From Pseudomonas oryzihabitans (lineage in GTDB: Bacteria > Pseudomonadota > Gammaproteobacteria > Pseudomonadales > Pseudomonadaceae): a stretch of DNA of 64,000 bases. Numbering within the stretch: position 1 is the first letter of the stretch; every line of letters begins with the position of its first letter. The notes below the pieces were generated by a model that ran no database searches, was not told where the DNA came from, and worked only from the letters and a program-made list of their open reading frames with translations. Positions 13,313 through 62,818 of this stretch are shown here, one piece after another. Where the stretch lies: NCBI RefSeq assembly GCF_001518815.1, contig NZ_CP013987.1:3990501-4054500 (forward strand), given 5' to 3'. Position numbers and translations under genes: made by a program.

Positions 13313-13433
13313 TAAGGTGGCGGCCTCTTTGGGGAGTAGCCTGCTTCCACCACGGTGGAAAGCGTCCTGATCAACATACTCGGCAACCGCCGTGGTCAGG
13401 ACAGCCAGTCAGGGTTGGCGAGACCAGGGGCAT
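13313..13433 (+). promoter_or_regulatory. yybP-ykoY manganese riboswitch
   Basis: The leader of mntP has the conserved elements of the yybP-ykoY aptamer: GGGGAGTAGC at 13331-13340, a hairpin GCTTCCACC / GGTGGAAAGC, the loop strand ACATACTCGG at 13374-13383 and a closing GGCGAGACC at 13418-13426. The two conserved loops form the Mn2+ site in characterised members. Binding of Mn2+ turns on the exporter gene, 64 bases downstream. Exact ends are approximate. Confidence 0.88.
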
Positions 13434-13496
13434 CACCGCGCCGTGCCGGGCGTGCGGGGATGTCTTGTGGATCCGAGCCCGGCCGGCGCTGTGACG

Positions 13497-33341: not shown

Positions 33342-33722
33342 GTGGAAAACGCTGCGCGGTTTTCCACTCTACGGTGTTGCCCTACGGCATCGACGCGGAG
33401 CTTGCCCTCACCCCAACCCTCTCCCGGAGGGAGAGGGGGCGGTTTCGAGCGGAGATTGGCGCTGCGCACGAATCATCAATCCCCCGTAGGTTGGCGCTGA
33501 GCGCAGCGAAGCCCAACGGTCGGACCACCCGCCTTCACCCCAGCCCTCTCCCCGAGGGAGAGGGGGCGGTTCTGCGCGGAGGTTGGCGCCACTCCGTAGC
33601 GTGGACAACGGCGCAGCCTTGTCCACGAATCCGCCGCCCACCCGTAGGTTGGCGCTGAGCGCAGCGAAGCCCAACGTGGGCACGACACCCTCACCCAATC
33701 CCTCTCCCAGAGGAAGAGGGGG
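33342..33722. repeat. Cluster of palindromic repeats (types A, B and C)
   Basis: The 519-base gap between PhzF and the GntR gene has no ORF of merit but is filled with repeats. Type C hairpins: 33342-33367 (stem GTGGAAAAC/GTTTTCCAC) and 33601-33626 (stem GTGGACAA/TTGTCCAC, loop CGGCGCAGCC). Type B: 33486-33517 and 33644-33675. Type A: 33405-33442, 33533-33571 and 33688-33722 (CCCTCTCCC facing GGGAGAGGG, some copies altered). The elements are separated by about 10-45 unique bases. Similar clusters lie at 39335 and 62281. Confidence 0.85.
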
Positions 33723-39334: not shown

Positions 39335-39882
39335 GTAGGTTGGCGCTGAGCGCAGCGAAGCCCAACAAGACACGGGCGCCCTCACCCCAACCCTCTCCCA
39401 GAGGGAGAGGGGGCGGTTCCGTGGATCGTGTTTAGGTTTGGCGCTAGCCGAGCGCAGCGATGCGTGGAAAACGCCCTGCGGTTTTCCACCCTACGCCAGA
39501 CTAAACGTAGGTTGGCGCTGAGTGCAACGAAGCCCAACAGGAGGGCACCCTCACCCCAGCCCTCTCCCAGAGGGAGAGGAGGCGGCTCCGTGGATAGCCT
39601 TTAGGTTTGGCGTTAGCCAAGAGCAGCAACGCGTGGAAAACGCCATGCAGTTTTCCACCCTACGCCAGACTAAACGTAGGTTGGCGTTGAGCGCAGCGAA
39701 GCCCAACAAAGGGTGAGCACCCTCACCCCAACCCTCTCCCAGAGGGAGAGAGGGGCGGTTCAGTGGATAGCGGTCAGGTTTGGTGCTAGCCAAGAGCAGC
39801 AACGCGTGGAAAACGCCCTGCGGTTTTCCATGCTACGTCAGACTAAACGTAGGTTGGCGCTGAGCGCAGCGAAGCCCAACAA
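39335..39882. repeat. Tandem array of composite palindromic units (about 170 bp each)
   Basis: Three complete units, 39335-39506 (172 bp), 39507-39675 (169 bp) and 39676-39848 (173 bp), and a partial fourth to about 39882. Every unit holds, in order, a type B palindrome (GTAGGTTGGCG then GCCCAAC), a type A palindrome (CCCTCTCCC / GGGAGAGGG family), a linker with TTTAGGTTTGG, and a type C hairpin (stem GTGGAAAAC / GTTTTCCAC) followed by CTACGCCAGACTAAAC or a close variant. Units differ by point changes and small indels. No ORF is kept across units and there is no CRISPR-like spacer diversity. Confidence 0.92.
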
Positions 39883-39909
39883 GGGGCAGGCATCGTGGCA
39901 CCCCGTAGG

Positions 39910-39935
39910 GTGGACAACGGCGCAGCCTTGTCCAC
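39910..39935. repeat. Isolated type C hairpin
   Basis: Perfect 8-bp stem GTGGACAA / TTGTCCAC around CGGCGCAGCC, identical to the copy at 33601-33626. It lies between the tandem array and the small acidic protein gene and could act as that gene's transcript end. Confidence 0.85.
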
Positions 39936-39954: not shown

Positions 39955-40092
39955 CTATCGCTTGGGACTCAAGGGGCTGTCGTCCTGGTCCTCGCGCTCT
40001 TCGGTGGTGGTGGTGTTCGCCGAATCCGGCACATCGCCGTATTCGTCGTAGTCGTGAGGGGTCTGCTTGTCGTCCGCGGGTTCGGGATTCAT
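39955..40092 (-). CDS. Small acidic, probably disordered protein
   Basis: A 45-codon gene on the minus strand, ATG 40092 to TAG 39957-39955. GGAG lies 6 bases upstream of the ATG on the coding strand, a good ribosome site. The product is very rich in Asp, Glu, Thr and Pro (start MNPEPADDKQ, a run of four Thr, end SPLSPKR), with no hydrophobic core, so it should be disordered. Function unknown. It lies 61 bases downstream of the TetR gene on the same strand. Confidence 0.6.
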   Translation of the reverse strand: MNPEPADDKQTPHDYDEYGDVPDSANTTTTEEREDQDDSPLSPKR

Positions 40093-44978: not shown

Positions 44979-45719
44979 ATGCCGCCCAAAGACCGTCATG
45001 GCAAGACCGCGCAAGACTATCGCGCCGCGCTCATCGCCGAACTCGACGCCGTTCCCAACTACCGTCGCCGCCGCAAGGCGCAGCGCTCTCCTCTGCTATT
45101 CGTCTGGCTACTGGTGCCTGTCGCTCTGCTCTGGCTGAACTGGCCTTGGGTAGAGCGTTGGCTGCATCCTGCGCCTGTGGCTGAACCGCCTTTTGAAGTT
45201 GCGGAGAGCAAAACGCCTGCATCTCCCCTCCCTCCTTCTTTACCTGCACCTCACCAAGCCATAGCCGCGCCTCAACCTCTAGATGCCTGCCTCAAGCAGG
45301 GCAACGTGGTGGATGAAGAGGTATTGCGTTGCCGCTATGGCGCCGTGCCTCGTGCGCAAGAGCCGGCTTCGGCTCCGCAGGGAATGGTGTCAGCAGCCTA
45401 TCTCGCCCAGTACAAGGCGGGGCAAGAGCTAGCTCCCGTGTATACCTCTTCCTCACCTTCTTTCAGCGAAAGCCATTGGGTTCGCAAGTGGGATGGCAGC
45501 GGTTCGTATTTGGCTACTTGGGAGGTACAAGACAGTCGGATTGATTACGGCAGTGTTTGCGGGAATCACCGTAAGGGATCAATTGAGTATCGGGAGTGTA
45601 GGAAAGGGGCAAAACAGTGGTTCAAGGGGCAATGCGCAGCATTGGGTAAGGCCAAGGGGCAAGAGCTGACTCGCGAGAGGTATTGCTCAGCGGCTGAAGA
45701 GTTTGGACCGATGGGATAA
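44979..45719 (+). CDS. Hypothetical single-pass membrane protein with Cys-containing periplasmic domain
   Basis: Predicted 246-residue protein. A cytosolic N-terminus (to about residue 35, Arg-rich) is followed by one membrane helix (LLFVWLLVPVALLWLNW), a proline-rich linker and a periplasmic domain with six Cys (CLKQG, CRYG, VCGNH, ECRKG, QCAALG, YCSAAEE), likely paired as disulfides. I know no family. Base composition is lower in GC than its upstream neighbours, and it borders the AT-richer accessory stretch. Confidence 0.6.
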   Translation: MPPKDRHGKTAQDYRAALIAELDAVPNYRRRRKAQRSPLLFVWLLVPVALLWLNWPWVERWLHPAPVAEPPFEVAESKTPASPLPPSLPAPHQAIAAPQPLDACLKQGNVVDEEVLRCRYGAVPRAQEPASAPQGMVSAAYLAQYKAGQELAPVYTSSSPSFSESHWVRKWDGSGSYLATWEVQDSRIDYGSVCGNHRKGSIEYRECRKGAKQWFKGQCAALGKAKGQELTRERYCSAAEEFGPMG

Positions 45720-45860
45720 TCCATTTTTAGCAAGACACTATCGATCCGCCAATTCTAGTCCGCACAGATCCATTCCTCCTGCCCAACGCTTTGGCAGAGA
45801 GCGTCTATACTGAAAATTATCTTATATATTTTTTACGATTTCCTAATAAAAAGAGGGCAT

Positions 45861-47498
45861 ATGGCAAAGAGAAGCGGCTTTGAGAAAGTGATTCGAGCCA
45901 TAGCGCGTGAAACAGCCAAACAGCAACGACTTCAAGCCTCTGAACAACGCGCCTTACAGCAGGAGGCCGACCGTACGCAACGTGAACAAAGAAGAGATAG
46001 GGCTATAAAAGAACGCGAGCAAGCTCGCTACAGCCGCGAGTCCGAACGATTTGCAAAGCAAAACTATTTAGAATTTCAAACACAAGAAGCACGCGACAAA
46101 AATGATAGCACCGCACTATTCTTAAGCGAACTTGAGAATATTTTATCCGCTACATTAATGGTTGATGACACGGTTACCTTTGACTCGCTTAGAGTCTTAG
46201 AAAACCCACCACAATTCGCCCCACCAAAGTCCTTAACAACTGCCATAAAAGGTCCTTCCCTAGAGTCATTTACGTCAAAAGTACCCTCTTTACCTTGGCA
46301 TGCCTTTTTAATGCCAGGCTATAAGGCCAAACACTCGGAAAAACTAAGACTCGCCAACGAGCAATTTATTGCTAGCGAGCAGCAAATCAACACTCAAAAC
46401 ACGCAACGTTTAGATTTATTAAGGAAAGCTCGCGAGGACTATGAAGCAGGAGTATCAGCTTTTTTGGAAAAGAAAGCACTTCGCGACTCTGAAGTCGATG
46501 CGTTTCGTTACTCTTATTATGAGGGCGACTCGGAGTCCATTGTAGCTTATTGCAGCATGGTTCTTGAAAAATCTGTCTATCCAGAAGGTTTTCCACAAAA
46601 CTTTTCTCTGGCCTATCAACCTGACTCAAAACAACTGGTAATTGAGTATGAACTACCTACGGTAGAAATAATCCCCAGCGTAGCCGAGTATCGCTATGTC
46701 AAAACTAGAGACGAGATCGTTGAGAAGCTACGCAAGCCTGGAGAAATAAAAGCATTATATTCGGATGTTGTGGCGAGCATAGCACTAAGATGCTTACACG
46801 AAATATTCGAGGCTGACCAAGGCGAGTTTCTTGAGACCTGCTGTTTTAGCGGATATGTGAATACAATTGATCCTGCAACCGGCCGGGAGATACAACCGCA
46901 TCTTGTTTCCGTCCGAACGTCGCGCAAAACTTTCACAGAGATAGACTTAGCGCGGGTAGATCGAGCTGTGTGCCTTAAAAATTTAGGCGCCCATGTTTCT
47001 AGATCTCCAAGCGAAGCTCAAGCCGTTAGGCCTATTATTGAATTTCATATGATAGACAAACGATTTATTGACCAACAGGACCTTACTTCACAGCTGAGTT
47101 CTGCCACCAACCTAATGGACCTTAACCCATACGAATTTGAAACTCTTGTAGCAAATCTATTCTCAAAAATGGGACTAGAGTCTAAGCTTACAAGATCCTC
47201 GCGAGACGGAGGCGTTGACTGTATTGCTTACGATCCCCGACCAATTCTAGGGGGAAAAGTAGTAATTCAGGCAAAACGCTATAGACATACCGTGGGAGTT
47301 TCGGCAGTTCGAGATCTTTACGGAACGATGATGAATGAAGGTGCAAACAAAGGAATCCTAGTAACCACTAGCGGCTATGGACCCGACGCATTTGAATTCT
47401 CGAAAGACAAACCGATAGAGCTGATCGAGGGTGGCGGATTGCTTTTCCTCCTTCAAGAAATCGGAGTTGAAGCACGAATATTAATGCCTGAAGACTAG
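45861..47498 (+). CDS. Mrr-type restriction endonuclease with N-terminal coiled coil
   Basis: Predicted 545-residue protein. Residues about 10-85 are a highly charged coiled coil (many Arg, Glu, Gln); the middle (about 90-400) is of unknown type with a further helical part around 165-210. The C-terminus is an Mrr-like PD-(D/E)XK nuclease: LNPYEFETLVANLFSKMG, SRDGGVDCIAYD with Asp453, VVIQAKRY with Lys472, and NKGILVTTSGYG. Mrr enzymes cut modified or foreign DNA. The gene is markedly AT-rich beside its neighbours, stands alone and has no methyltransferase partner, all of which suggest horizontal acquisition and a defence role. The fusion layout is not one I can name. Confidence 0.8.
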   Translation: MAKRSGFEKVIRAIARETAKQQRLQASEQRALQQEADRTQREQRRDRAIKEREQARYSRESERFAKQNYLEFQTQEARDKNDSTALFLSELENILSATLMVDDTVTFDSLRVLENPPQFAPPKSLTTAIKGPSLESFTSKVPSLPWHAFLMPGYKAKHSEKLRLANEQFIASEQQINTQNTQRLDLLRKAREDYEAGVSAFLEKKALRDSEVDAFRYSYYEGDSESIVAYCSMVLEKSVYPEGFPQNFSLAYQPDSKQLVIEYELPTVEIIPSVAEYRYVKTRDEIVEKLRKPGEIKALYSDVVASIALRCLHEIFEADQGEFLETCCFSGYVNTIDPATGREIQPHLVSVRTSRKTFTEIDLARVDRAVCLKNLGAHVSRSPSEAQAVRPIIEFHMIDKRFIDQQDLTSQLSSATNLMDLNPYEFETLVANLFSKMGLESKLTRSSRDGGVDCIAYDPRPILGGKVVIQAKRYRHTVGVSAVRDLYGTMMNEGANKGILVTTSGYGPDAFEFSKDKPIELIEGGGLLFLLQEIGVEARILMPED

Positions 47499-47808
47499 GA
47501 AAATGCACAAAAAAATCATCAAAATACAATCCTAACTTGCCACATAATAAAACCGCCTACTGAATAGCCGCTGCCTAACTTAAAGAAATCTCAACATAAC
47601 ACTACAGATAAAAACCATCACCTTTACCAAAAGGAATCTCAAGTTTAAATCACACAAGCTCTATCTAAATATTGCGTATCAATCCATTGGTCGATTGCAA
47701 AGCTTGCACTAATAATTGGATTATTTTCTTAAAAAAGCTCAATGACTCCGACTACTCCTCATTAAATACTAGGCCCCAGCCACAGTACCCCCCACAAGGA
47801 CCGTCCCC
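47499..47808. other. AT-rich intergenic stretch
   Basis: About 310 bases of AT-rich sequence continuing the low-GC character of the nuclease gene. No supported ORF, terminator with a clear stem, or mobile-element end was found. The last 25 bases are GC-richer and hold the AAGGA ribosome site of the curlin-like gene. Confidence 0.4.
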
Positions 47809-62290: not shown

Positions 62291-62818
62291 GTTGGGCGGC
62301 GTTGGGGAGTCCGGGTCGCGTGGATAAGGCTGCGCCGTTATCCACACTACGAAGTCGGCTCTTCACCCTGAATGTCCCCGCCGCACCGTATGGCTCTCCT
62401 TCCCGCTTAGGACGGCAGGTGCAAGAGAGGGCCGTAGCGTGGAAAACGGCGCAGCCTTTGCCACTCCTGGCATCAGGTGAGCCTTTGTTGGGCTTCGCTA
62501 TGCTTAGCCCAACCTACCGGGCTGATCGCGCTGCCTGACACGAAAGGCCTGGGGCTTTTTTGTTGGTAGCGTTGGAGGTCCGGGTCGCGTGGATAAGGCT
62601 GCGCCGTTATCCACACTACGAGGTCGGCGCTTCACGCTGAATGTCCCCGCCGCACCGTATGGCTCTCCTTCCCGCTTAGAACGGTAGGTGCAAGAAAGGG
62701 CCGTAGCGTGGAAAACGGCGCAGCCTTTTCCACTCCTGGCATCAGGTGAGCCCTTGTTGGGCTTCGCTGCGCTCAGCGCCAACCTACGACCGTGCACTCC
62801 GTAGGTTGGGCTGAGACG
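62281..62818. repeat. 269-bp direct duplication containing palindromes
   Basis: Two adjacent copies, about 62281-62549 and 62550-62818, in register at exactly 269 bases from 62311 to 62517. Each copy has a type C hairpin GTGGATAA / TTATCCAC (62320-62345, 62589-62614), a second type C hairpin with stem GTGGAAAA (62439-62464, one mismatch in the 3-prime arm; 62708-62733, perfect) and an inverted type B element (62487-62517, 62756-62787). Substitutions are scattered between the copies. The duplication fills the gap between the chemoreceptor and GST genes, where no ORF is supported. Confidence 0.92.

What the first reader, a model, noticed from the sequence alone, without database searches (positions are those of the whole stretch)
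39335..39882. Three-unit tandem array of composite palindromes directly after the fucose operon
Units of 172, 169 and 173 bp each contain three different palindromes in fixed order (type B, type A, linker, type C), then restart. Compounding several repeat types into a higher-order tandem unit suggests mobilisation or amplification of the whole composite, as with BIME structures, and the array is 11 bases after the last gene of an operon. It could act as a transcript end, mRNA stabiliser or gyrase/IHF site.
Basis: seen in the sequence. Interest (0 to 1): 0.65.

Follow-up and report, generated by a model that had tools for sequence, protein, structure and literature searches.

The report
Tandem REP array after fucose operon
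A stretch of about 550 bases after a sugar-degradation operon in a Pseudomonas is a real three-fold tandem repeat built from common bacterial "REP" palindromes; it was copied locally rather than jumping in as a block, it is one of many such arrays in this genome, and it is an ordinary example of a known kind of repeat.

Summary
It lies in the Pseudomonas oryzihabitans group. B and C are two GTAG-tagged REP families, each found beside its own REP-associated transposase (RAYT) gene in this genus. A is not a plain palindrome: it matches the known "TM" intrastrand-triplex motif. The A-C linker occurs only in this array within the genome, but a single copy lies at the same locus in three relatives. 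So the composite did not move as a block: B, A and C came together here and about 170 bp of local DNA was then tandemly amplified, most simply between direct B copies. L032 and L033 have one unit, L034 a partial one, G003 two full units plus the C of a third. Sixteen other tandem arrays in this genome all differ in organisation from at least one of two relatives. Such REP arrays of variable length are known in Stenotrophomonas and P. fluorescens. An effect on mRNA ends is plausible but untested; an IHF site is not supported. In G003 three fucose genes are missing next to the array. New member of a known kind, modest interest.

The parts
39335..39506 (+). Unit 1 (172 bp): B 39335-39366 (GTAG-REP, forward), A 39379-39411 (TM triplex motif), linker, C 39464-39494 (GTAG-REP, reverse)
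39507..39675 (+). Unit 2 (169 bp): B 39507-39538, A from 39548, C 39633-39663
39676..39848 (+). Unit 3 (173 bp): B 39676-39707, A from 39720, C 39806-39836
39849..39880 (+). Terminal fourth B copy; array begins and ends with B, as direct-repeat-mediated amplification would leave
39905..39935 (+). C REP in opposite orientation (variant with GTGGACAAC stem), just past the 3' end of the convergent small ORF
39412..39463 (+). Locus-specific linker between A and C, found only in this array in the genome, single copy in the close relatives L032-L034
38548..39324 (+). Last operon gene, L-fucose dehydrogenase (NF052481)
39955..40092 (-). Convergent 45-aa ORF; its sequence is kept in L032-L034 and G003
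33342..33720 (.). Second, irregular REP/TM cluster (C A B A C B A) upstream of the fucose genes, downstream of the GntR-family regulator

Best explanation
A REP/BIME-type cluster that became a local tandem repeat. Step 1 (inferred from RAYT adjacency): two separately dispersed GTAG-REP families, B and C, and a TM triplex motif, A, came to lie in the gap between the fucose operon and a convergent small gene, giving a B-A-linker-C-B-C layout. Step 2 (pattern shown, mechanism inferred): unequal recombination or replication slippage between the two direct B copies amplified the roughly 170-bp segment, unique linker included, to three units plus a terminal B. Step 3 (shown as pattern): units keep turning over, and unit number differs between species. 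Most likely effect (inferred): mainly a neutral by-product of repeat-rich DNA, with stable hairpins that may protect the operon mRNA's 3' end and hinder read-through between convergent genes.
For: Exact units and terminal B. Linker confined to this array, with single-copy relatives at the orthologous locus. L032 and L033 carry one unit flanked by two B copies; L034 lacks the first B, has a truncated second B, and has no amplification. Unit pairs between this genome and G003 are only 85-91% identical, against about 97% over the adjoining 5.3 kb and 3 differences in the roughly 110-bp tail after the array, and they do not pair off by position, so units have been exchanged or converted. Sixteen other tandem arrays each differ from at least one of two relatives in unit number or layout. 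RAYT genes of this genus lie beside B, C or D elements.
Against: One genome per species, so variation within a species is unseen. Recombination between B copies is inferred from the ends of the array, not observed. No expression data. C is degenerate in L032 and L033, so the exact pre-amplification layout is partly reconstructed. Bootstrap support in the unit trees is weak (32-68). G003 may have acquired its copy by recombination rather than descent, since this locus is more alike than most others compared.
Confidence: 0.9

Rival explanations
1. The B-A-linker-C block is itself a mobile composite (a large REPIN-like element) that was moved and amplified by a RAYT transposase.
For: B and C families each lie beside RAYT genes in this genus; a B-flanked RAYT is present in this genome at 4097662-4098096; REPIN movement is described (PMC3116915).
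Against: Linker not found outside this locus in the genome; in the genus the full unit matches only here and at the same locus in G003; other arrays use other orders.
Confidence: 0.04
2. The array is a selected 3'-end element of the fucose operon: its hairpins stop or protect the transcript, and tandem copies strengthen the effect.
For: 11 nt after the stop codon; strong RNA folding (z = -5.2); in a crude gene call, clusters lie between convergent genes 55 times and divergent ones 5 times, against 5 and 10 for gaps over 60 bp in the window; L032 and L033 keep a B element at the same spot.
Against: No U-tract terminator next to the gene end; G003 lost three operon genes yet keeps the array; arrays of many compositions occur at many unrelated loci.
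Confidence: 0.25
3. The triplex motif A drives the amplification by stalling replication, as proposed for TM motifs in E. coli.
For: A1 matches the TM consensus exactly; TM sites are associated with instability in E. coli (PMC4666352).
Against: Several arrays in this genome have no A in the repeated unit (B x4, C x5, D-C-C x4), so A is not needed; triplex formation in vivo was not supported by that paper's footprinting.
Confidence: 0.12
4. A DNA site for IHF or gyrase, as for some E. coli BIMEs.
For: General analogy with E. coli BIMEs (prior knowledge).
Against: Best IHF-like matches inside the array have 2 mismatches and overlap the C stems; gyrase binding not testable here.
Confidence: 0.05

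Closest known systems
SMAG arrays of Stenotrophomonas maltophilia (PMC2613905)
   Same: GTAG-tagged REP monomers or dimers reiterated in tandem with flanking DNA; unit number differs between isolates and is used for typing
   Different: Here the unit holds two different GTAG families plus a TM triplex motif; variation shown between species only
Tandem REPIN clusters and GI-GIII arrays of P. fluorescens SBW25 (PMC3116915)
   Same: Tandem repeats of REP doublets including flanking sequence; mixed-family arrays with a 184-bp period
   Different: Different REP families; here B and C are a hybrid inverted pair, not a self-pairing REPIN
GTAG REP super-family and its HH/TT dimers and clusters (PMC3733652)
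   Same: GTAG tag, 20-40 bp stem-loop, found downstream of genes and beside RAYT genes
   Different: That paper names no P. oryzihabitans repeats; B and C could not be assigned to its numbered families because its Figure 1 is not held
TM/PIT intrastrand triplex motifs (PMC4666352)
   Same: A1 matches the TM consensus CCCTCNCCCN3-6GGGNGAGGGN3GGGNGAGGG exactly; 81 of 137 A elements exact, 110 within one mismatch
   Different: Here it sits inside a repeated composite with REPs; triplex formation not tested

Membership tests
GTAG REP (B and C) | 5' GTAG tag followed by an imperfect palindrome of 20-40 bp | tested here: met
   B and C begin with GTAG and fold as stem-loops
GTAG REP (B and C) | High copy number, mostly between genes | tested here: met
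   76 B and 129 C in the stretches fetched; whole-genome pattern counts 59 and 115; 3 of 126 clusters flagged as possibly intragenic by a crude gene call
GTAG REP (B and C) | Adjacent to a RAYT gene (REPtron) | tested here: met
   B beside RAYTs in G000, G003, G001, G008, G011; C beside RAYTs in G001, G010, G012. In this genome only B- and D-flanked RAYTs were found
TM/PIT intrastrand triplex motif (A) | Three-arm consensus of PMC4666352 | tested here: met
   A1 exact; A2 and A3 one mismatch
TM/PIT intrastrand triplex motif (A) | Forms a triplex | not testable with these tools
   No biophysical data
REPIN | Two inverted REPs of one family that pair into a single long hairpin | tested here: not met
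   B and C stems have different sequences, and A plus linker lie between them
BIME (mosaic of REPs and other motifs) | REPs in alternating orientation with interspersed other motifs, repeated | tested here: met
   B forward, A, C reverse, repeated three times
Variable-number tandem repeat | Unit number differs between relatives at the same locus | tested here: met
   3 here; 1 in L032 and L033 (L033 has a further partial duplication); partial in L034; 2 full plus a C in G003. Within-species variation not tested
Mobile composite | Same composite at unrelated loci | tested here: not met
Intrinsic terminator | G+C stem followed by U-tract near the gene end | tested here: not met
   No such site at the gene end; three weak matches in the region against 0.8 expected

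The most novel reading that the evidence does not exclude
REP/TM tandem arrays in this genus act as recurrent break or recombination points that reshape neighbouring operons, the missing fucose genes in G003 being one such event at this array, with the triplex motif A contributing.
Probability: 0.15. Interest if true: 0.45.

Novelty: new member of a known kind. Interest (0 to 1): 0.27.

Why it matters
It gives a clear worked case of how higher-order REP arrays arise: separate short elements meet at one 3' intergenic site, and local duplication, not movement of the composite, multiplies them. The 17 arrays compared here are candidate length markers for strain typing in the P. oryzihabitans group, and the G003 gap beside the array is a possible example of array-associated gene loss. 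Otherwise it is an ordinary feature of REP-rich Pseudomonas genomes.

Tried and rejected
Mobile composite: rejected because the linker occurs only at this locus. 'No cognate RAYT in this genome': my first conclusion from Pfam PF01797 (one hit); corrected when NF047646 found a second RAYT flanked by B. IHF site: only 2-mismatch matches. Rfam: nothing in the array. Intrinsic terminator at the gene end: none. Trees of the units: too short for firm support. The 114 bp at the G003 junction had no convincing match in the DNA held. A paper search for P. oryzihabitans REP sequences found nothing.

Full report
What is there. The window belongs to a Pseudomonas of the oryzihabitans group: the closest loci to the last operon gene are from Pseudomonas sp. 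102515 and P. oryzihabitans, 94-95% identical in protein; it is the stretch 3990501-4054500 of a 4.83-Mb single-contig genome. The gene at 38548-39324 matches L-fucose dehydrogenase (NF052481) and its neighbour L-fucono-1,5-lactonase (NF052480, 349 bits, below its 400-bit cut-off), so 'fucose operon' is fair. It ends with a fourth B (39849-39880), followed by a C in the other orientation (39905-39935) and a convergent 45-aa ORF, beyond which lies a TetR-family gene on the minus strand.

What the elements are. B and C each begin with GTAG and fold as short hairpins, the hallmark of GTAG REPs (PMC3733652). In this genus RAYT genes lie directly beside B elements (five genomes), C elements (three genomes) or a third family, D, GTAGGAGCGGCCCATGGCCGCGA. 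This genome holds one RAYT flanked by B (4097662-4098096) and one flanked by D (4280839-4281252). A is different: reversed, unit 1's A reads CCCTCTCCCTCTGGGAGAGGGTTGGGGTGAGGG, an exact match to the TM intrastrand-triplex consensus of PMC4666352; 81 of 137 A elements match exactly and 110 within one mismatch. A was not found beside any RAYT.

Genome picture. In about 115 fetched stretches I counted 137 A, 76 B and 129 C in 126 clusters; many clusters are tandem arrays with other orders: A-C-B at 1466978, A-C at 3586907 and 4461861, B alone at 1479235, 3482588, 3828245, 4137165 and 4240428, D-C-C at 1932808. In several of the B arrays the spacers also hold a longer B-like palindrome that my B pattern did not count. 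A crude gene call puts clusters between convergent genes 55 times and divergent genes 5 times, against 5 and 10 for the window's gaps over 60 bp; this caller mislabelled the focal gap, so the figures are rough.

How the array arose. The linker between A and C has no match outside this locus among the fetched clusters, and the whole-genome search shows no hit confined to it. In L032 and L033 the same place holds one unit followed by B and C; in L034 the first B is absent and the second truncated, with no amplification. So the unit was amplified in place, most simply between direct B copies, which explains why the array starts and ends with B. Across the genus the full unit otherwise occurs only in G003, at the same locus.

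Turnover. G003's two full units and this genome's three are 85-91% identical across species and do not pair off by position, although the adjoining 5.3 kb is 96.9% identical and the roughly 110-bp tail after the array differs at 3 places. Diagnostic sites look mosaic: the last G003 unit shares its B-A spacer with unit 3 but much of its linker with unit 2. This fits exchange or conversion between units. Sixteen other arrays compared at orthologous loci in G003 and G001 all differ from at least one of these in element number or layout; against G003 only one of sixteen has the same elements in the same order.

The G003 gap. G003 lacks the dehydratase, lactonase and L-fucose dehydrogenase genes at this locus; after the hydrolase gene come 114 bp of unplaced sequence and then the C that aligns with unit 1's C. 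L032-L034 keep the genes, so loss in G003 is the simpler reading. Whether the array caused it is unknown. This locus is more alike between the two genomes than most of the 16 other loci, so a recombination tract is also possible.

Function. RNA folding is strong (z = -5.2), but no intrinsic terminator sits at the gene end and no good IHF match lies in the array. A role as mRNA 3' stabiliser is plausible and untested. Arrays whose unit lacks A are amplified too, so the triplex motif is not required.

Known or new. Tandem GTAG-REP arrays with co-amplified flanking DNA and strain-variable unit number are described in S. maltophilia (PMC2613905), and tandem REPIN clusters with flanks and mixed GI-GIII arrays in P. 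fluorescens SBW25 (PMC3116915). A unit combining two REP families with a TM motif was not seen in the passages read, but this is a new combination of known parts. Verdict: real, well explained, new member of a known kind.

Noticed in passing
L277 (G003:C1:4564000-4581000): G003 lacks the last three fucose genes at this locus; the gap ends at the REP array, with 114 bp of unplaced sequence at the junction.
   Followed up: partly
33342-33720: A second REP/TM cluster lies at the other end of the fucose region, next to the GntR-family regulator, so the region is bracketed by repeats.
   Followed up: partly
62320-62787: Another cluster in the window: an inverted C-C pair repeated with a 269-bp period, then B.
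   Followed up: no
13324-13492: Manganese (yybP-ykoY) riboswitch, 51 bits, the only Rfam match in the window.
   Followed up: no
45700-47700: An apparently AT-richer stretch (dense A/T-rich pattern matches) around a 545-aa ORF (45861-47498) whose C-terminus resembles Mrr-type restriction endonucleases by eye; possibly acquired DNA.
   Followed up: no
L259, L260, L261, L262, L263, L270: RAYT genes of this genus split by flanking REP family: B, C or D; C-flanked RAYTs were found in relatives but not in this genome.
   Followed up: partly
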